From Crambe crambe (Eukaryota; Porifera; Demospongiae; Poecilosclerida; Crambeidae), in NCBI GenBank assembly GCA_963924555.1, contig OZ004582.1, positions 434,001 through 498,000 of the forward strand: a stretch of 64,000 nt of DNA. The letters are read 5' to 3'. Of this stretch, positions 2,026 through 26,181 are shown piece by piece (the first letter of the stretch is position 1; every line of letters begins with the position of its first letter). Position numbers and translations under genes: made by a program. Below the pieces are notes generated by a model. The model was given only the letters and a program-made list of their open reading frames with translations. It ran no database searches and had not been told where the DNA came from.

Positions 2026-5000
2026 GTGAGTTATTTTAACAATTAATAATAGGATCAACTTTGGGAGTTTCTCCAGCTTGTTGACAAGCCCATGTATATA
2101 CTAGGTCTAACACTGTATAAAACAAACAGTATAACTCTACTTATATTATTCTTGTACCACTCTATAAGATGCTTCAAACACTGGTATAGAACCAATTATA
2201 TCATTCTATAGTTCAATACTATAACAACCAAGTCATTATGATATGATAATTATACAAATATGGTTCCCCACTGGTACACGAAAATAAAACGTTGCCTTCT
2301 CTGATATCACCGTAGACAAGCTCACAGCTTGTGTAGTTCGGCGATCCAGTCCAAAGCGCTATCAATGTGATTCAAGAAAACGGGCTTTTCAAGTACACCA
2401 CTAAACACAGCAGAGTATGATTCTTTCCGACAACTTGTAGGTTCAGGTTTTCGTAGTAGCCAAGGAGCTTCATTAAGTACATGTTAGGTTTTTAGCTAAC
2501 TTTAGCACTTCATTTGAACCCTTTGTACTTGTAATTGATTTTTTCACCGGATGGAGGGTTTTCCCAGAGCCGGTCACATATTCTAGATTCTGATTTTTGC
2601 TCAGCCGTAGAAGGTATTTTGGCTTCATCGGAGGGGGCTTTACAGCTTAGTTTTTAAGTTAATTTTCCCTAGCAACCATGCGTGGGCGGAGTGTGCCTGC
2701 ACCATTAAATATCACATCTGCAAGTACATAAGTTAGTGCATTGTAGTCTAGCTTTCTTGCACTTACGGCTTGTACAGCTTCGGCTGGATTTGCAGGAGGA
2801 TCAGTCACAGGCGGTTGAAGATGAGCATGATAGATCAAACGAATAGCTCCATTGAAGTTTTTAGCCACAGCATTTTCTTTTTGGTAGCTACTACAACTAC
2901 AGGAACTTCAGCTTTTGATTGGTTCAAAGCTACAGCCGGAACTATAGGGTGGTAAGGCAGTCTGTTGCTGCTACAGTAGCTACTGGTTCTATTTCTATAC
3001 CCAAATTATTGGCAGTAGGAAACTGAGTAATGCTGATACCCGTTCCATGAAAAGATCGGGATTATCAACACCACCTACTACTACAAATGCTAATCCCAAG
3101 ATATTTAAGTTCCTCTATTACGCACAAATGAATGAACTTTCGAACCAATATATAGAAGAAGATATAGAGGAAGAGGAGGCTCACGGATAACAAAGTGTCT
3201 GTAAAAACTCTTTACTGAATCATTCTTGGAGTTGAAAAGTATTAATGATATAGTGAGAGAACACTATGTATTCATATGGCTATCTTGATTGGATCCATTA
3301 GAGATGAGAAACTTAGATTGTAAGGCACACACTCTTTCGAGGAAAGTACCCCTTTGCTTTGACTACATAGGTACTATCGGGTCCTATTAGGTCATTCTCC
3401 TTTTCTCTGGTTTTCAAGAAATCTTGTCCAGTTTTTCTTTATTATTCCTATTGGTTGCCTTAGACATTTCCTTGTAGATATTGTCTAATAATTCCTGCAG
3501 CCTTTTTATTTCACGTTGTTGTTTTTTTTGAGCAATGGAAACTGTTAAATGAATAGTATGAGTTCGGTTGTACTGAAGTGACACGAGCTCATTTTTCCCA
3601 AAAGACACATACAATGTCACTGGACATTTCACTGATCTACAGACAGAAAAAAAAATTGAGGAAGTAACAAGCCTGCCAGTTCACCCTCACCGCCGACAAA
3701 ATGGGAACAGGACTCCATAAAGTGTATTGTGCAATTATTAATGCCAACTCCACCCGTCAGACACCCAGAACAACCCTGGTCTGCTCCACTGGGGTTGCAT
3801 CTAGCAAAGCTATAATGGCACTTGTAGCTTATCAGTGCTTATGGACTAGGACACCAGACATTCTTACACAATGTGGCCTTCTAAATTTCCATGGTGTAGC
3901 TCTGCTGACCATCGAAATTGAGAGAGTTTATTACCTATCACTCTGAAAACTGAGTAGTGGATCTTATTCTGTACACAATGAAATATTTCAATTCAAGAGT
4001 ATCTAGCAATTGTGACAAGTTTTACCTGTTAGTTAAAATCACAAGAACTATGAAATTATGAATGGAGGGGATTATCACAGAGCCTTCCAGAAGGAACATG
4101 GGTGTCTGGTGGAGGGCTGGAGCATCCATGCCAGTATGTTTTGCATGGCAAGAAAAAGTACAAGCCCCAAGTGAGACAGATTCTGAAAGGGCTGAAGAAC
4201 TTAAAGAAAAAAAAAGATGACTCTTGAATTATGAAACACTATTTAGCTGAACTGTATAACGAATCTGTTCTGCATAAAAGTACCCACGTGAATGTAAGTA
4301 CCCATTTCAATTACGAATTCGATTAGAAGTACCGGTACTTATGCTCCCAAGAATACAGTATTACACTGAAGGTGACTATAGTGAGGTGAAGTATGATGAT
4401 GACTGGTGAAAGAATCCTATTTTATGGTAACCTGGGAAACTGCATTTTGTATGGACATGCTACATAGGCTTGATAAGGAAATATTAATGGACAAATAAGT
4501 TACAAGCAATGGCAGTGTGCGCAGCAGAAGATGCTGGATTTGTTGAATACAAAGACTTGGCAGGAAGTGTCAAAACAGGATGCATGAATACACCCGAGCA
4601 AAAAAGTTTGTTTTGTACCTCCCACAAGCCGAAAGTGCCATCATCTTCTAATCCACTGGGATATCATGAAGTAATAGAAATGATACGTGCAGTCATGTGG
4701 TTAGTACTACAGTAGTTAGGTATTGGCCCACACGAGACTAAGTTGGTTGATCGATTGATCGCATCACTACTGCTATCTAGGCTAGCTGAAGACTAAGAAA
4801 TCTTTTGGCACATGGCCGAAAGGATCACAAATCTACTTAGCTCAGCTCAGATAACCTACAGCCAGAGCTAAAATTAGAATCAGAGCTAAGGCTATGCTAG
4901 CTAGCTGCTGCATGTGCTGTGCATGCTGTGTGCATAGAGTGGAGGCTACACCATGTTCAGCTGCCTGCTATCCAACTCTTCTGGTTTCATTTCAACTGAA

Positions 5001-16844: not shown

Positions 16845-17400
16845 ACAGGAAGTTCATTCCGAACTTTTCTACGTTAGCAGCACCACTCTCTGACCTTACT
16901 GGAAAGAAGATCCCAGACAAGCCGAATTGACAATTATTCACCAGGAGTCATTTGAGAATCTCAAGAAGGCTTTGATTTCCGACTCTGTTTTGATGACACC
17001 AGACCCCCCACAAGGAGTTCACTCTACAGACAGATGATCTACGCGAGGAGTTGGAGCCGTTCTCAGCCAGAGAGACAGCTATGGATCATTGAGACCTGTA
17101 TCTTACTATTCACGAAAGCTATTGGACGGGGAGACACGTTTCCATCACAGAGTTGGAATGTTTGGATTCGGTACTGTCACTCTCAACAACTCTTCAGAGC
17201 AACAATGCAGCTGGAACTGACTTTGATGATCTATGTGAGAGCCATACGAAAGGGAAACTTTGAACTCTACATAGAGTCCTTGACAAAGATTGTTCTTTGC
17301 TTTAGACCATACCCATTACTCCAGATGGGTGCCGGTTCACTTGCGTGATATGGTTTCACTGAAGCTTCATGTGTAGCAAATGTTGTGATATGTCAGCTTT
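16845..17400 (+). mobile_element. Ty3/gypsy-like fossil, RNase H-side piece
   Basis: Plus-strand frames carry a QESFENLKKALISDSVLMTP string, a GVGAVLSQRD string and a PVSYYSRKLLDGETR string, the usual order at the RT/RNase H junction of Ty3/gypsy-like elements. It is broken in several places, with no LTRs seen. Confidence 0.65.
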
Positions 17401-17439
17401 CAGGTGCAAGTTCTCAGATCGAGTTTTGAGAAAACGGTG

Positions 17440-18130
17440 GCTCCATTTAGAATGTGAATGAGGTCGTCTAGTGTCGGATTGGGGTGTCTCTCTCTTCGAA
17501 TGGCTTCATTTGGTCTTCTCATGTCCACACAGAGACGGACACTTCCATTCTTTTTCATTCTTTTGGGGAGTAACTACTAGTGGGGAGACCCATGGTGTGG
17601 CACCGTTGACTTTCTCAATGATGCCTTGACGTTCAAGCTGCTCCAGTTCTTCTGACACTTGCTTCCGAAGATGCAAATGGAGAAACTGCTTAATCAGCTC
17701 ATCAGAGGTTTGCTGAGTTTGTATCTGGTTAACCTTGACATCAATAATACCCAGATCACAAGCAGTCTTGTAACTCAATAGAGAGCCATGATTGCCTCGG
17801 ATGACGTGGATCGTAGACTGGACATGCTTGGTTCCAATGCAAATATCAGCGGTGAACTGGCCTAGTACATGAAGTTGGGAGTCAGATCCATATGCAAATA
17901 TACGTTTGGTAGATCGTAGGAGTTCAATTTCTCCATTCCGTTGCTTCGAAGCCAGTTCTTCCAGCGTTGCCCTAGGCTTGTGGGATCGCTTAGAGGGTCA
18001 AATGGAGAGAGTGGTGTAAGACCGAGTCCTGGTTTCGCCGTTCCTTCTGCCATACCTCGAATCCTCGTCACCAGTTTGTGTTCCAAGAAGCAACCGTTTG
18101 TGTGCTTGGACCACGTGGCAACTAACTTAT
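17440..18130 (-). mobile_element. Ty3/gypsy-like fossil, gag-like and RT-start pieces
   Basis: The minus strand contains DPLSDPTSLGQRWKNWLRS, a gag-like start, and then, after a gap, LRKQVSEELEQLERQGIIEK with TPWVSPLVVTPQK, the start of a Ty3/gypsy RT domain. It faces the plus-strand RNase H piece just upstream, so the locus holds either two elements or a rearranged one. Broken, old, no LTR identified. Confidence 0.65.
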
Positions 18131-18510
18131 CATTCCATAATCGTGAATTACATAATTGTGACATGATATATGATTGTGATGTAATCATGACATAATGTGT
18201 GATTGTGATACATATGAGCATAATAGTAAGTATGAACATTACAGGTATAATTATAGCTATACAAAGCCATACATTGATCAGTGGTGGTGGATTCATAGAT
18301 GCAGGTTCATCAATAATATCCATGCACTTGCATCCGGAACCACGCCCACTTTTCCCTTACCACACCCTTTTTATAGAAACTGTGCCCACTTGATGCTTAG
18401 CCAATCTAGCAAATGCATGGTTGAGATTTATGGATCCACCACGATGACACAAAGCTTGTCCAGTAAGTAATGCACATTACCTCCTTCAGTGGTAACCTAC
18501 ATATCTGCAG

Positions 18511-18767
18511 GTACTTGTCTAGATGTCTTCTTATTGAATTTTCTGCTCCAAGTCTGGATATCTCCATGACCGACTATTCAGAATTGCCTAAACTTTTAAA
18601 GAGGTGAGGTCAACAAGTTCAGTAGGATCTCTCATTGCCATTGGTAAAGAATTTGTTGAAAGGGGCAGTAAAGAAATGGACTACCCAAGCTTAGAGGTCT
18701 GCTGGACTTGCCAGTTATACCACGAGTTCTCTCTTCATATGCTATACTTTTTTGGTTCACCATGGAG
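18511..18767 (+). pseudogene. Unrecognised exon, family X copy 1
   Basis: After an acceptor (ATATCTGCAG) the frame reads YLSRCLLIEFSAPSLDI and DYSELPKLLKR. A one- or two-base shift follows near 18,605, and the next frame reads SSVGSLIAIGKEFVERGSKE and MDYPSLEVCWTCQLYHEFS, ending at a donor (GAG|GTATGT). The exon is colinear with 49,191-49,380, which shares SRCLLIEF, the LPxLxK block and the IxxGxEF block. I do not recognise the family. Its recurrence within 31 kb suggests that a mobile element carries it. Confidence 0.45.
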
Positions 18768-19567
18768 GTATGTCTCTGTATAAGGTGTTTGTTGAGCAAT
18801 AGCAGAATTATACACAAAGTGTGTGCTTGATTGAAAGTAAATAACTGATTAACCCCACAAAATAGGTGACTAAGGCTGCAGGTCTAACATAGAAGAAGAG
18901 CTCTTTGAACATTTCAAAAACAAGATGAGCTCAGTTATTATAAATCTTCAGGCTGGTGAAAGTGGTGTATGTAATCTGAAGAATAGTGCTGCAGTATCTT
19001 CTATAAAATCACTAGATGAATTGGGATCAGAAATTGTGCAATGCTGTGAGAATCTTGACATTTATCATTCATGCAGTAATTATACACCAGTGCCAATTTA
19101 ATGGAAACCTATTGAAGTCACAGATGTTAAGCCTTCCGGGTACATGGAAATTAAGTTTTGAACATGAAAAGTACAAGCGTGACGTATTAACCCATAGCGA
19201 CGACCTAGCAACCACAGATTCATTTCCTGAGGTCTTGAATATATTCATGCAAACCACCACGTGTCTAGCTATGGGATAATTGCCTTAGCGAGTTCTTTGC
19301 CATCTGGATGCAACAAAAATCCGCCCACCACAGGTGCGTTTACACTAGATTGAAGTTAGGCTGTTGATTTAAGGTAGTCTACTAAATGCTGACAAACGGG
19401 GGATAATCACTATTTCAAGAGAACTAAGGTGTGCTGGTGTAGAAAGAGGAGGAATATTACAAGCAACTTTTGAAGTCCAGGTATGGTGCCTACTTTTCTA
19501 AAGCTTGGAATAAACATGTTAAAATATGGTATATTTGCATGCAGATGTAGAATGTGGAGTTTATGGT
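18768..19567. other. No gene recognised
   Basis: Spacer between the family X exon and the 3' end of the N-RAG-TP-like gene. It could hold the 3' terminus of that element, but no inverted repeat or target duplication was identified. Confidence 0.4.
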
Positions 19568-22500
19568 TCAGCTGCTGTGGGGGATCTGGTATTCCTGCTC
19601 TTTCTCCTCTTGATGTCTGGCCACATGCTCTGGTGCTATATGAAGCAGATGTTCAGTCATGAGGGTTCGAAGTCTATCCACCTCCTCAGGAACACTTGCG
19701 TAGGTACGCTTGAGCCGGTTAAAATGGGCATGTATGCTCTCTATGCCCTGCTCTCCAAGAAGCCCAAATCCCACATGAAATTTCCTCAACCAAGGAAGCA
19801 CATGCTCTTCAAGCATGTGCATCTTTGGGAGTACTGTGGCATGTGGGAACTCTTTCCGATAGAAAGCCATGAAATCTTTTATGTGACCACCTGGTTAGGA
19901 GTAATGTATGACTAGGCACCACTTTAGATACACTACTAGACCTACCCAATTCTGTGATCTGCTCATCAGTGACATAGTTACTTGTGGCACAGGGCAAAGA
20001 GCCTAAATGCCTCCTTGAATTTGATGACGAGAGTGGTTGCCTCGGCAACTAGAGTAGGGCAGTGGGCCTGTTTAGCATTGAAGCACACATTGTATCGATA
20101 TTTTTGGCCTATGAATATTGTAAGATTCAGTTGTGCATTATAATAGAGACGAGATACCTTCAAGCTGACATGCACGTGGTTGCCAACAAAAGTGCCACTA
20201 TAATAGGCCTGCCTCTGGACACGAAATGACTGAAGGGCCTTATCCAGTGCTCGAACAAATGGCCCCTCGTCTTTCTTGAAAGTTTTGGCCAGGGAACTCT
20301 GAAGCTGTTGCCTTTCTATTTTCTATTGGATGTGAATACTGTTATTATAGGTACACTAATGTTGAATTGCATACCATATCATTCAACTCTTTCCTCTTGT
20401 CAGTTATGGCACTCTGAAGCTGTCCCAACTGTGCCAATTGAGAAGGGGTAGCGAGGGTGAAGATGGTGACTAATTGGTCCAGAATGGATATTGCTGACTC
20501 AACCTGCCTACACTTGTCAGCCAGCTGCACTTCCCTCCTATAGGACTGGACGTAGGCTTCATAGGCAGCACCACCATCCACATTTCGGAGGAGCCCACGC
20601 ACATCAAGTTCATGGCAAGATCTTCTAGGAGGGTGAACAGCCTGAAGAAGATGCCCAAGGTAATATGTAGACCTGGTGGGCAAACCTACCAAATTATATT
20701 ATGTGTAAGTAATGTTACTCCTGATACTTTTTAACATGCCTTGTCTACACTGATGGTGAACAGAGGCTCCCTGATGACATTATGGAAGAATTTGGCTCGC
20801 TTAATGTTGGAACCATCTGCCTTAAATGCTGCCAAGTCACAAGCTAATGTGGCGTCAGACCTTAGCTGTACTGGTCCCCTCATTGATGGTGCCAGCTTCA
20901 GCTTATCGGAAGCAACATTGCACCACAAACAGCAGTGTTTTCCTGTGAGAATGGATGCGTAGTCTCCACAGTAGACCACTCTGATCTTCTTGCCCCTATA
21001 ATTGTGAGATTAAGCTAATCCAATTTTTTGTTTACTAGCTGCATGCTTACTTCCACTGTTTGGTCTCAAGGGTATCAACCTGTTCCTGGAACCTGTGTGC
21101 CATGACTGTTAGATTGGTCACACTGTCTGGCCCTTCAAATATGCAGAAGACACAAGTATTGTTGGGTGCATTGGGGTATAAAACATTCACGATCTGGACA
21201 GCCATCTTGAATGTGCCACCCCCTTTGTCCCCCCCCCCCCCCCCCCCAATCTTTATCCAGATTTCATCCTCTGGGAGCCTCCCCCCATGCCAACTCAAGC
21301 ATCCATGCCTGTGATAACAGTGTACCTCTCGTTCTGTTCCAGCAGTTGTTCCACCTTCTCCCACAGATCCGGGATATACCCAAATGGCCTCATCTTCACC
21401 TCTTCCCCACCATTACCATCTTTCAATGGGAAGGTAAGAGCCACTTTCTCAACCACCACCCCATCCCCAATCACTTCCCCAGCCCTCTTCCTCATCAGTT
21501 TCTCACTGGCCATGGATACATGGCACTCGTTGAACCACCTGTGTATTAATTGAGTCTACATTACACTACAATAATTTTTATGTTTCTAGAGACCTCCTGA
21601 TGGCTCTCAGCTTCGACCATGGAATGCCAAGATCTGCCTTCATGGCAAGGGCGTGGCTAGTGGGTATGACCACCTTGATCCCACTCTGGAGCTCCATGAG
21701 AATCTCCTCTCTCTCCTCTAGGGAGCAAGCCTTGACTTCCTTGGCCAGCTGGAAACCCTGTTCCCCCCCACTGAGAACCTCCCGGTGCTGATTCAGCTCT
21801 TTTGTGCGGGCAAGTACTGTTTTTGGTGTGGCTTGAGAAGACAGCACTCGACAGCTCCTGGCCTTTACCAGGGTGATATATAATCATAGTGACGGTTTTT
21901 GTTATTGTGGGTTTTTGAACTAATACCTGTCCTCCAGTTCTAAATTGAATTATGCCGTCTCCTTGCACTAGCTTCCTTTTGACAAGGGTTGTGGCTAGCT
22001 TGTCTTCTTGCCTCGATAGTGGGGTATTTAGGGGTGTAGCCATGATCTCTTCCAGGGAGTGTGGAGGTGGGGCAGCACAAATATGCTCTTCAAATCCCAC
22101 TAGTATGTAAAATATTTGTGACAAGATGTTGTGTTATGTTGTTTTTATTTGCACATACCTGCAGGAACAGCTTGCTGGCATCTCTCGCAAGGAAAAGCAA
22201 TGTCTCTCAGCATCCTCTGAACAACTGTTGGTGCAGAAACTACAGAGGTTCTATCAATGGTGTGCGTTCCACCACATGGACACCGAAGGTCAGTGTATCT
22301 ATATGTGTGCCTCACACAACATAACATACAAATTAATGCTTTGCAGATGGTCAGCTGTAAGAGACAGCCTCTCTCTGAGGGCAAACGCTAGTGGTACACT
22401 GTGCCTCCTCTTTCATGTATGCCACTAGCTCAACAATGAGGTGCGATGGCCTCCCAATGGGTGCTTTTTTGGGCTTTTGACACCACTCTCTTCCCACTTG

Positions 22501-22722
22501 AATTTCGTTAGCCGAGGTGTATAGTCCCTCCCCTCTTTAATGGCTTTCTCTGCACCCGTAGCAAAATCTCTGTGGGTGGACCTCTATTCGATCATCTGCT
22601 GTGATCACCCCTATCTGTGCCAGCTTTGCCTTGTTGGTAGTGGTGTGGCAGTCATAAGACACTTTGTACCTTGAGAGTTTCCCCCCACACACTCTACACC
22701 TATCCTGCAACCAGGCCATCAA
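19568..22722 (-). pseudogene. N-RAG-TP-like transposase with RAG1-like N terminus
   Basis: Reading right to left, exon 1 (22,722) has CRVCGGKL...HPQRFCYGC, the paired zinc ligands of the RAG1 N-terminal region, followed by a GRPSHL linker. The next exon has LRCPCGGTH and APTVVQRMLRDIAFPCERC, like the RAG1 segment after its RING, and ends at a GTATGT donor. Further exons read GFEEHICAAPP/LEEIMATPL, TPKTVLARTKELNQHRE with MKADLGIPWSKLRAIRR, and FKMAVQIVNVLYPNAPNN. VVYCGDY with GKHCCLWC, AYYSGTFVGNHVHVSLK, and MLEEHVLPWL...GLLGEQGIESIHAHFN follow. The D of CGDY and the E of GEQG are candidate DDE residues, and the first D region is altered by the C-run at 21,229. At least three frame changes mark it as dead. 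N-RAG-TP is the Aplysia transposon family with a RAG1-like N terminus; the assignment is from memory of its motifs. The segment's introns appear short. Confidence 0.65.
21229..21247. repeat. 19-base C homopolymer
   Basis: An uninterrupted C run inside the N-RAG-TP-like gene, read as polyglycine on the minus strand. It falls where an acidic residue of the catalytic triad is expected (IWIKIG...GGGTFKM). Assembly length of such runs is unreliable. Confidence 0.9.
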
Positions 22723-24444
22723 CCTAAATTATACATGTTTGTTTTTTATAATTTTTTATTAATTTTATGTCAGCCAATACTGACCTCCAAAAAAGTAGGC
22801 ACCTTATCTTTGCAAGATCACCGGAAAGAGCTGAACTTCCTCTTCAAGATACTATGATTATCATAACTACATAATTGTGGTTTAGACAGGATGTCCATTC
22901 TTACCGCACTACTTCAGCGTTACCTCAGGAATGCATACTGCTGTTTTGCCTGCGCAGTGCTATAGCACTGCAGCTGCGACTGCTCAGTCTAGTACTATGG
23001 CAACAGTATGGGAATGGGTTTATATAGAGTGTTGTGGAAAGTTCTGATTGGTTGCCATGGGCTGTGTGGTGGAGCTCTGGAATGTGACTGATTTTCATGA
23101 GTTTCCCTCCTGTACGTCGCTATGGTTTTTCCCGCGCATGCGTGAACTTGTTCAAAACTTAATTATTCAATAATAACAGCAGTGAAGTAAGCAGTTAAGA
23201 TTTTGTCTTGTGATGACCATTGGGTGCAGCTAGTATAAATAATATGAATTACTATTTGCAGATCTGGACATTCCTCCGCACTGATATATTTTATAATCGA
23301 ACACAAGTATTGGCCATTAGACCAGAATTACCTGTGACAAAAATATTGGAGTACGAATATTCTTAAATCCCAATAAAGGCCACATAAATCACCTCCGTTA
23401 TAGTTAGTCCGATGGACATGCATTAATATTGAGCTCAGCTTGCATCATTTTTTGTACAAAAATAATAGCCTTCCCCCCTCATTGAATTTTTGGATGGGAA
23501 ACAGTTATATGTGGCCTAATACTAGTTATGTATCCCATTAGGTTTCTATAGCAAATGGTGGGAAACAGAAGCGGTGCAAACTATTGTATTTGAAAAAAAA
23601 TTTTCTGATGAATTCAGTCTCAACTCATCCAAGGTGACTACATAACTATACTATAAATACTCTCCTATGCTGCCTTACATGCATGTGTAAAGCCAGTATA
23701 CTTGCAATTCTGGAATGTTTTGTGCAAAACTGTAGTGACATCAAATCAGAAAAAACCTTCAATTGAGAAGACTTCTTTGGCTGAAAATTCTTCTGGTATT
23801 GACTCTATTATACAATTCTGCCATGCATGTTTTATTCCTTCAAAACATAGTACAATCTGGCAAGGAAGACAGTGTAGAGAGTGAGAACAATACTACATAA
23901 AAGCATTAATCCCCATGTTTAACTTACAATAATCAAGTTTTATTCATTATTTTCTCTTCAGATCATCACCGAAGCTAGACCAGCCTTTTCAAGCATAAAC
24001 ATGTCAAAGGTCAAAGGTCGCAAAAATAAAAGTGCTAATCAGCTAGAGTTCTTGATCCTTAATAATGACCATACACTCCATGAATATCTGGCGTAGGAAC
24101 AGGGGGTGGCCATATCGATGGCTTTACCAAAACAATTTATTCTTCAGTCACAGCACAAACTATAGATGGCTCAGGGGATCCAGAGCTGCAGATCTTGTTG
24201 AATGTCCATAGAAAAGTCTCATACCCCCCCACGTAGGCAAGATCCCAAAAACATATCTGAAACCTGAACTTAAATATCTTTCTGGCGACCCGCCGCTAGG
24301 CACTTAGCTGACTCAACCTTCAAAGATTCAGTCTCGGGCTCCATGCATGGAAGATCCACACATAGACAATCCAGTAATTCTGACATTAAGAATATTTAGT
24401 ATGTCAGCTTACTTGCCGTGAATGTCCAGTCATAATATAGACAT
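22723..24444. other. Mostly non-coding, possible exon pair
   Basis: A plus-strand frame near 23,541-23,630 (YSKWWETEAVQTIVFEKKF, ending at a GTGACT-type donor) and another at 23,702-23,884 (FWNVLCKTVVTSNQKKPSIE) could be consecutive exons of one gene. No family is recognised, and the evidence is weak. Confidence 0.25.
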
Positions 24445-24598
24445 ACCCTGGATGTTTTAAAACATCCAGGGTCTGTTTCATGTCAGAGATACTATCAGAG
24501 ATACCATGAATATCAGAGTATCTCGGACAGCATGATGGTACATCCAGGGTTTGTCTCATATCAGAGATACTATCTGACATTATGATAAAACATCCAGG
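24445..24598. repeat. Perfect 28-base palindrome plus CATCCAGG repeats
   Basis: ACCCTGGATGTTTT is followed directly by its exact complement (24,445-24,472). The same ACATCCAGGGTxTGT string returns at about 24,540 and again at about 24,590. TCAGAGATACTATC blocks alternate with it, giving two degenerate units of about 90-100 bases. Confidence 0.8.
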
Positions 24599-25000
24599 CA
24601 GTGGCGGATCCAGGGGGGTTTGAAGGTTTCCATTGAAACCCCCTTTGGGCCGCTATTCCAGTAGTCTGGCGTAGCGGCGACCCATACCAACCCAAGGGTG
24701 GGGACAATAGCATCAACAACTTGTATCTCATGTCAAGATTTTGATGTGATCAATCAGATCGCTTGATGGATAATTATTGCATTTTTTTTGACGTACACGT
24801 GACGTATAATAATGAACGTGCAGCTTTTCAATGCTCAAAACTGATTGCAGAGACATGGATTGTATAGGTTGCGGTGAGCTCATGCAGAAGGGATCTAGAA
24901 GAATCATATCTGATTTCACAGACATTCTTTCTATGTGGGAGGAAGCATTGAAGAAAATTTGGAAGAGACAAGGGCCAAGAAGATGATAGATTTGTGACAC
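24599..25000 (+). mobile_element. Family Y zinc-motif element, copy 1
   Basis: The left end, CAGTGGCGGATCCAGGGGGG, looks like a hAT-type terminus. At 24,667-24,720 it carries a CTGGCGTAGCGGCGACCC... segment that is the reverse complement of 50,040-50,110 in copy 2. An exon follows from the ATG at 24,855: MDCIGCGELMQKGSRRII, then ILSMWEEALKKIWKRQGPRR and stops. The protein is nearly identical to copy 2. C-x2-C at the start and, in copy 2, CRKCY further on suggest a zinc-associated domain of the ZAD type. No transposase is present. Confidence 0.5.
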
Positions 25001-25245
25001 GCTATATGAAAACCAGGAATGTTACTCAATAATCAATTTATGGATATGCGCGTACAAAGCCAAAAAAATTTTTTTATCCAATTCTTTTTTCTTACCTCCA
25101 CGATATCTTCGGTCCTTTGACTGCCTCCATACCAAATTTGAGGAGGAGAGAAGGCTTTGAAGTGGGCAAGCGCTTGAGTTGAAGTCACCCACTCAAACCG
25201 ACATAATTATTTTGACCTACGTGCCCAAAGATTATGCTTTATGCA

Positions 25246-25505
25246 TAGGAAGATGACTGCTCATAATGAATCCTGCCAAGCAGTAGGTGTATCCTTCATC
25301 CCCATGGTTGTCGAATCACTGGGAGGATGGAGTGAAGAGGCATCCCTTACATCAGCAGAATTGGCCGTCACCTGGGTCAGAGGACTGGCTCATCCCCAGG
25401 AGAAACCACCCACCACCTCTTTCAACGTCTTGCCATCACCCTGTGGAGAGGCAATGCAAACCTGTGGCTCAACCTATGCCACCACCTCTCCCTGGATTGA
25501 CGGAA
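25246..25505 (+). mobile_element. Reverse-transcriptase element fossil, C-terminal part
   Basis: The frame reads GVSFIPMVVESLGGWSEEAS, and a neighbouring frame reads HHLFQRLAITLWRGNANLWL. This pair is the C-terminal signature of the CXC-domain reverse-transcriptase family whose N-terminal part lies at 6,484-7,487. It is broken and only this end is present. A T-run at about 25,569-25,588 follows, close to where a 3' end could lie. Confidence 0.5.
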
Positions 25506-26181
25506 GCACTGTATTTTTATATTTTTATTCTCTACACTATTGAACCTTTAGTTTGTTTGTTTGTGTGTATGTGTTTTTTTTTTTTTTGTTTGTTTAACTG
25601 TAACTTTACCCCATTACATGTCACACCCCAGATTAATATTGAATTACGGAGGGCATGCATACGTAGTGCGCGGAAAAAAGGGAAATTCCCCAGAAATTAT
25701 ATTGATGTGTATGTTGAATCTAGACATAGCTACTGAAATGTAAGTACAAGCTATGGCAGTAGCCATCCAACTTCTCAGGCCACATCTGGAGGTGCTGGAA
25801 GAGTATTATTGTCTCCTTCAACCCTAGGTCCAGCTCACTCCGAGCCCTGATCCCAGCAGTGTATATATCCTGTTTCCTTTATCACATGAATCAACTATGC
25901 AAGCTTTAAAACAGAGATACGATCATGAAATTCACTAGTATCTAAGGCTTTTCATACATCTATCTGCCCAAAACTTACCAGGTTATGATCCAGGATTGGC
26001 CCCATGCCTTACACACCCAAGGCGCTCAAAGATAACAACGCAGTGAAGCAAAACTTACATGGCCTTCTTCCTCTCTCAAACAGTTGGTGCAAAGATTGAA
26101 ATGATGTCATCGCGCGTATGGCATGCCGTAGGTATCAAAAATCAGATCCCTTAAAAGATTATATCAATACTCTCAACGTCA

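What the first reader, a model, noticed from the sequence alone, without database searches (positions are those of the whole stretch)
19568..22722. Multi-exon N-RAG-TP-like gene with the RAG1 N-terminal zinc region
The order of parts is CRVCG...HPQRFCYGC, then LRCPCG...VVQRMLRDIAFPCERC, then a core with GDY, HCCLWC and GEQGIES. The first two match the RAG1 N-terminal domain and the segment after its RING; the core looks like a separate DDE nuclease. N-RAG-TP from Aplysia is the known precedent for a mobile origin of the RAG1 N terminus. A copy in a sponge-like genome would extend the range and could show whether the core D, D, E residues are YCGDY and GEQG. Family assignment is from memory.
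Basis: partly seen in the sequence, partly recalled or inferred. Interest (0 to 1): 0.78.

Follow-up and report, generated by a model that had tools for sequence, protein, structure and literature searches.

The report
Chapaev transposon with RAG1-like N terminus
This is a decayed copy of a known kind of cut-and-paste transposon ("Chapaev"), in a non-bilaterian and probably sponge genome, whose enzyme begins with the same string of zinc-binding parts as RAG1, the recombinase that assembles vertebrate antibody genes.

Summary
On the minus strand, 19119-23184 is a 4066-bp DNA transposon copy with CAC...GTG ends and a 4-bp target duplication (AAGT). Three other end-to-end copies have their own 4-bp duplications, and a related unoccupied site on C10 carries AAGT once. 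The gene has about eleven predicted exons. Its N terminus is a RAG1-type Chapa zinc region, a RING and a further zinc finger; its core is a Chapaev transposase (Pfam DUF1280, over cut-off), not an unrelated nuclease. The window copy is broken: 12 deletions remove half the RING and damage the exon after GDY. Its own link to RAG1 is sub-threshold and runs through better-preserved relatives in the same genome. One relative passes Pfam RAG1_imp_bd (2.6e-10), and a four-sequence profile hits full-length RAG1 residues 102-364 (5e-14). Chapaev transposons with Chapa and RING are published, from lancelet and sea anemone among others, so this is a new member of a known kind. Four complete copies carry a 16-bp repeat 30 bp from one end and 20 bp from the other. 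N-RAG-TP itself could not be compared.

The parts
19119..23184 (-). whole transposon copy, family A (4066 bp), decayed
   Evidence: both ends shared with L031, L032, L034; one end with L033; unoccupied related site on C10
19115..19118 (.). target site duplication AAGT, left
   Evidence: single AAGT in the C10 site
23185..23188 (.). target site duplication AAGT, right
19119..19131 (+). terminus CACAGATGTTAAG (3' end of the gene)
23172..23184 (-). terminus CACTGCTGTTATT (5' end of the gene)
19149..19164 (+). subterminal 16-mer AATTAAGTTTTGAACA, 30 bp in from this end
23149..23164 (-). same 16-mer inverted, 20 bp in from the other end
22159..22719 (-). exon 1 (by alignment to L033): Chapa region, remains of RING, start of the next zinc finger; frameshifted and with deletions in this copy
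   Evidence: Pfam RAG1_imp_bd 0.0077, below cut-off, on 22537-22728
21927..22099 (-). exon 2: end of the zinc finger after the RING (FEEHIC 22077-22094), then linker
21593..21879 (-). exon 3 (ends approximate): conserved linker ending ADLGIPWSKLRAIRR (21593-21637)
21321..21538 (-). exon 4 (ends approximate)
21051..21308 (-). exon 5: first catalytic D in GGDKGGG (21215-21235)
   Evidence: PF06918 DUF1280 8.5e-12 on 21047-21412
20958..20996 (-). exon 6: second catalytic D, CGDY; truncated in this copy by a 79-bp deletion
20734..20942 (-). exon 7: CxxC of HCCLWC
20375..20685 (-). exon 8
20158..20322 (-). exon 9 (contains GNHVH 20170-20184)
19946..20108 (-). exon 10
19568..19890 (-). exon 11: H-x4-H (19802-19822) and catalytic E region GEQGIES (19736-19756)

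Best explanation
The feature is an inactive copy of a cut-and-paste DNA transposon of the Chapaev superfamily. Its single multi-exon gene coded a transposase of roughly 970-990 aa built like RAG1: Chapa zinc region, RING, further zinc finger, linker, then an RNase H-type DDE core carrying CxxC and HxxxxH motifs. The transposase is expected to bind the CAC-ended termini, excise the element and join it to staggered target DNA, leaving 4-bp duplications. Shown: ends, duplications, an unoccupied related site, domain order, and D/D/E and zinc-type residues shared between families A and B. Inferred: catalysis, splice junctions at single-base level, and a regulatory (ubiquitin-ligase or import) role of the N terminus, by analogy with RAG1.
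For: Four of four end-to-end family-A copies have CAC...GTG ends and 4-bp duplications AAGT, GGAT, GATT, ACCT. The related site on C10 without the element has one AAGT. DUF1280 is over cut-off in family A (8.5e-12), B (1.3e-14) and C (7.4e-14). Family B has a perfect 13-bp inverted end CACGGGTGTTTTG and duplications GGGT and CCTC in two of two copies read at both ends. The family-B N terminus gives RAG1_imp_bd 2.6e-10 and the family-C Chapa piece 7.4e-9, both over cut-off. The N-terminal profile A3 gives full-length RAG1 as best of 177,635 PDB sequences, 5e-14, residues 102-364. Family A is joined to family B by blastp 9e-15 (N terminus) and 45% identity over the core. In family B the D-to-CxxC spacing of 19 equals RAG1 D708-C727 (RAG1 numbering recalled).
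Against: The window exon and the best family-A exon do not reach significance to RAG1 alone (0.0077; 0.0048; 0.6, where four chains named M1249L ranked first). Family A lacks two Chapa cysteines and the RING histidine. In the family-C copy L045 the Chapa and RING parts lie in different frames. The core profile A4 (2 sequences) found no RAG1 or Transib chain up to E = 10. No RAG1-core family match was found in the genome (where no control rang either). Spacings other than D-to-CxxC and H-to-E differ from RAG1 (D1-D2 75 against 108, D2-E 354 against 254). Family-A termini are only partly inverted repeats. No expression or activity data.
Confidence: 0.93

Rival explanations
1. It is an N-RAG-TP element in the narrow sense: a transposon carrying only a RAG1 N-terminal protein, lying next to an unrelated DDE transposase gene.
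For: RAG1 N-terminal similarity. A 2021 review describes N-RAG-TP as composed entirely of the N-terminal-like sequence (PMC8355894 passage).
Against: In families A and B the N terminus and core lie between one pair of ends, and in C within one shared 4.3-kb repeat, on one strand. Modelled introns are about 40-60 bp with mostly canonical splice sites. The spliced L042 model reads as one 968-aa protein.
Confidence: 0.04
2. It is a host gene (RAG1-like, domesticated), not a mobile element.
For: Multi-exon structure; long open N-terminal exons in relatives such as L051.
Against: Shared sharp ends, target duplications, an unoccupied related site, copies on three contigs differing by 0.54-2.23% substitutions, and frameshifts in the window copy. 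Other, unfetched places in the genome were not examined for domestication.
Confidence: 0.01
3. It is a Transib or RAG-like (RAGL) element.
For: RAG1-type N terminus; CAC ends; CxxC and HxxxxH motifs in RAG1-like order.
Against: 4-bp rather than 5-bp duplications (Transib 5 bp in PMC4411706). No PF12940 match (without a ringing control). Core matches DUF1280.
Confidence: 0.02

Closest known systems
Chapaev transposons with Chapa and RING domains (Kapitonov and Koonin 2015, PMC4411706)
   Same: Chapa zinc region, followed in two subgroups by a RING; distant relatives of the Transib/RAG1 core; CAC...GTG ends and 3-4 bp duplications (PMC4079192)
   Different: Already known from lancelet and sea anemone, so non-bilaterian hosts are not new; a sponge host would be an extension but is not proven here. 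A zinc finger after the RING is clear in family B and its relatives. Family A has lost zinc ligands.
N-RAG-TP of Aplysia (Panchin and Moroz 2008; paper not seen, known from reviews PMC8355894 and PMC13337447)
   Same: RAG1 N-terminal-like protein carried by a mobile element
   Different: Here it is fused to a Chapaev core. Sequence comparison was not possible.
Vertebrate RAG1
   Same: Collinear N terminus (residues 102-364 matched) and the same order of D, D, CxxC, HxxxxH, E in the core
   Different: Core too diverged for a sequence hit; 4-bp rather than 5-bp duplications; RAG2 not searched
RAGL transposons of molluscs, nemerteans and cnidarians (PMC7204232, passages)
   Same: RAG1-like N-terminal zinc motifs, TIRs and duplications
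   Different: Those carry a RAG1-type core and a RAG2-like gene. No RAG1-core match here (without a ringing control); RAG2 not searched.

Membership tests
Chapaev superfamily | DUF1280-type transposase core | tested here: met
   PF06918 over cut-off in the window copy and families B and C; 23 of 23 listed matches over cut-off in the genome
Chapaev superfamily | 5'-CAC ... GTG-3' termini | tested here: met
   family A, family B. Family C shows CAC at one end only; the other end is unresolved
Chapaev superfamily | 3- to 4-bp target duplication | tested here: met
   4 of 4 end-to-end family-A copies and 2 of 2 family-B copies read at both ends; unoccupied related site; not shown for family C
Chapaev superfamily | DDE catalytic residues | tested here: met
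   GGDKGG, GDY and the E's of GEQG(A/I)ES are invariant between families A and B (2 sequences); activity not assayed
Chapaev with Chapa + RING | Chapa (RAG1 N-terminal) zinc region | tested here: met
   families B and C over the RAG1_imp_bd cut-off; window family sub-threshold but homologous to B
Chapaev with Chapa + RING | RING finger after Chapa | tested here: met
   profile A3 matches the RAG1 RING collinearly. No Pfam RING model passed its cut-off. The window copy has lost half of the RING, and family A lacks its histidine
N-RAG-TP | sequence similarity to the Aplysia element | not testable with these tools
N-RAG-TP | element composed only of RAG1 N-terminal-like sequence (as a review puts it) | tested here: not met
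   N terminus and core lie in one element
Transib / RAG1 | RAG1 core family PF12940 | tested here: inconclusive
   0 matches in the genome, but no control genome rang; no RAG1 hit from the core profile
Transib / RAG1 | 5-bp target duplication | tested here: not met
   4 bp in the 4 family-A and 2 family-B copies read
RAGL transposon | RAG2-like partner gene | not tested
   no RAG2 search was run

The most novel reading that the evidence does not exclude
Family A shows a RAG-like recognition logic in a non-bilaterian Chapaev: CAC-started ends followed by the same 16-mer at 30 bp on one side and 20 bp on the other, a 10-bp (about one helical turn) difference like the 12/23 rule. Together with the fused Chapa-RING-zinc finger N terminus, it would mean that both the RAG1 architecture and asymmetric end recognition are older than bilaterians, and that RAG1 did not gain its N terminus from a separate N-RAG-TP transposon.
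Probability: 0.12. Interest if true: 0.75.

Novelty: new member of a known kind. Interest (0 to 1): 0.42.

Why it matters
A 2026 review still says that RAG1 arose from at least two transposons, with its N terminus from N-RAG-TP (PMC13337447, passage), while Kapitonov and Koonin argued for one ancestor that already had Chapa, RING and core together (PMC4411706). A non-bilaterian genome with three Chapaev families in which Chapa and RING precede a DDE core in one element supports the fused-early view. Chapaev was already known from sea anemone, so the gain is largest if the host is confirmed as a sponge. A young family (B, 99.3% alike between L042 and L043) offers material for testing what the N terminus does. 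It does not settle the question, because horizontal transfer of Chapaev elements is documented (PMC4079192).

Tried and rejected
A pattern search with a guessed codon string found 0 matches. The family-A exon against solved structures gave RAG1 only at 0.6 and above, and four chains named M1249L ranked first at 0.011-0.027, so a direct claim for the window family was dropped and homology is argued through family B. The core profile against solved structures found no RAG1 chain (its one row, 9uc5, E = 3, was taken as chance). NCBIfam gave nothing useful for four proteins (only rad18, 0.063, far below its cut-off). The idea that the enrichment on C3 is special to this element was weakened, because Harbinger transposases (PF13359) are also enriched there. 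I first misread the stretch after GDY in the other family-A copies as holding a stop; the script showed an open exon end followed by an intron. The host was not identified to species.

Full report
What was found. They lie inside a repeat that begins and ends sharply. Blastn of window 17001-26000 against 20 fetched 9.9-kb stretches gave long matches in four, L031-L034; three of these (L031, L032, L034) share both ends with the window, and L033 shares one end and is truncated at the other. The ends are CACAGATGTTAAG and, inverted, CACTGCTGTTATT. Four of four end-to-end copies are flanked by different 4-bp duplications: AAGT (window), GGAT, GATT, ACCT. Joining the two window flanks and searching the genome found a related site on C10 (85% identity, 371 of 407 query bases in one match). 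It reads through the junction with a single AAGT. A 132-base probe from one end finds five matches, the copies already listed. Substitution differences between the five copies are 0.54-2.23% over 3485-4190 aligned sites.

Gene. In the better-preserved family-A copies exon 1 is one open frame holding Chapa, RING and, in L033, the start of a further zinc finger. Spliced models give about ten or eleven exons with introns of about 40-60 bp. Single junctions are predictions and several in L033 are uncertain: the two runs of the script disagree around exons 5 to 7, and neither found the intron after GDY, which was placed by eye. The window copy is broken. It has 12 deletions of its own, or shared with a minority, totalling 249 bp, against 10 singleton substitutions in 4052 compared sites. 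The 62-bp and 79-bp deletions remove part of the RING and the end of the D2 exon with most of the following intron.

Relationship to RAG1. Directly, the window exon gives Pfam RAG1_imp_bd 0.0077, below cut-off, and the better family-A exon 0.0048, also below cut-off. The case rests on relatives in the same genome. The N terminus of family B (seven fetched places, L037-L043) and the Chapa piece of family C (L045, L046) are over the cut-off (40.8 and 36.0 bits against 23.3; one protein of each tested). One family-B protein alone finds the solved RAG1 N-terminal chain 21wb at 2.4e-5. A profile of four sequences, one of them family A and two 97% alike, finds full-length RAG1 first at 5e-14 across residues 102-364. 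The best non-RAG1 chain is an LNX RING at 1.7e-4. Families A and B match each other at 9e-15. A genome search with the family-B N terminus gave 63 rows, which merge into 37 places; RAG1_imp_bd gave 18 rows, all over its cut-off. Family A has kept CRVCG and HP..FC..C but lacks the CxxC after the tryptophan and the RING histidine.

Core. DUF1280 is over cut-off in the window copy and in families B and C and gave 23 rows in the genome. A published RNase H classification says that DUF1280 corresponds to Chapaev transposases and puts it in one clade with RAG1 (PMC3985635, passages). Families A and B are 45% identical over the core (the family-A row is a hand-joined mosaic). The spliced family-B model (968 aa) has D487, D562, C581/C584, H890/H895, E916. 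D2-to-C is 19 residues, as for D708 to C727 in RAG1, and the last H to E is 21 against 20; D1-D2 (75 against 108) and D2-E (354 against 254) differ (RAG1 numbers recalled). Hence D1 is GGDKGG, D2 is CGDY and E is most likely the second E of GEQGIES. Against this, the core profile finds no RAG1 chain up to E = 10, and PF12940 finds nothing in the genome, though its control also rang nowhere.

Family. Chapaev hallmarks are CAC...GTG ends and 3-4 bp duplications (PMC4079192, passages). Family B has a perfect 13-bp inverted end and duplications GGGT and CCTC. Chapa plus RING is already described for two Chapaev subgroups, and Chapaev was identified in lancelet and starlet sea anemone (PMC4411706, parts 1-3 of 4 read). 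So the element is a Chapaev member, and a non-bilaterian host is not new in itself. N-RAG-TP could not be compared; a review describes it as only the N-terminal part (PMC8355894, passage), which this element is not.

Host. The genome is 143 Mb in 119 contigs. Its COX1, on a 19.5-kb contig, reads with TGA as tryptophan, and 4 of 5 arginine codons in the 230 codons read are AGG. This is mitochondrial code 4 and does not fit the usual invertebrate bilaterian code, in which AGG is serine. A sponge fits; a cnidarian or placozoan was not excluded, nor was it tested that this contig and C3 come from one organism.

Ends. In four of four complete family-A copies the 16-mer AATTAAGTTTTGAACA lies 30 bp inside one end and 20 bp inside the other; in the window copy a second shared 11-mer lies at 73 and 59. 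Random 250-bp pairs of the window never shared more than 13 bases (254 pairs). These copies are nearly identical, so this is one observation, not four. Family B shows no such long asymmetric repeat close to both ends in the two copies read: its longest non-terminal match is 13 bases at offsets 71 and 237, in one of the two.

Prior art. Listings only, unless said: Chapaev with sponge, 7 papers (passages of one, PMC4298943, did not concern Chapaev in sponges); Chapaev with Porifera, 2; RAG1-like with Amphimedon and transposon, 0; RAG1 with transposon, sponge, N-terminal and Transib, 5 (passages of one, PMC13337447). None of the titles or passages seen reports these elements in sponges, but most of these papers were not opened, the library lacks most subscription journals, and Repbase was not available.

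PMC4411706 names sea anemone, so the claim was narrowed and interest lowered from 0.45 to 0.42.

Noticed in passing
19119-23184 and L031-L034: The window copy has 12 deletions against 10 singleton substitutions; L031 6:13, L032 5:65, L034 5:18, L033 1:4. Pairwise counts in families B (3-5 indels per 12-25 substitutions) and C (3 per 28), a somewhat different measure, are far lower. Little microhomology at the breaks as aligned.
   Followed up: partly
18887-19118 and 23189-23360 versus L056: The window flanks, compared with the related C10 site, lack five short stretches while the C10 site lacks none before the fetched piece ends, so the deletion-rich decay may belong to this part of C3 rather than to the transposon.
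   Followed up: partly
contig C3, 0.4-4.0 Mb (window at its edge): 23 of 47 merged Chapaev places and 8 of 35 merged Harbinger (PF13359) places fall in this 2.5% of the genome (the interval was chosen after seeing the matches, and match lists are lower bounds): a transposon-rich, decaying segment of unknown nature.
   Followed up: partly
L042, L043, L039: A young Chapaev family (B): 12-25 substitutions in about 4.2 kb between these three copies; L042 has an open N-terminal exon of 317 codons.
   Followed up: partly
17506-17997, minus strand: An open frame that looks, from memory, like part of a Ty3/gypsy-type polyprotein lies near the element.
   Followed up: no
21229-21247: A run of 19 C (plus strand) lengthens the glycine stretch before the first catalytic D (GGGGGGDKGGG) compared with GGDKGGG in L031.
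   Followed up: no
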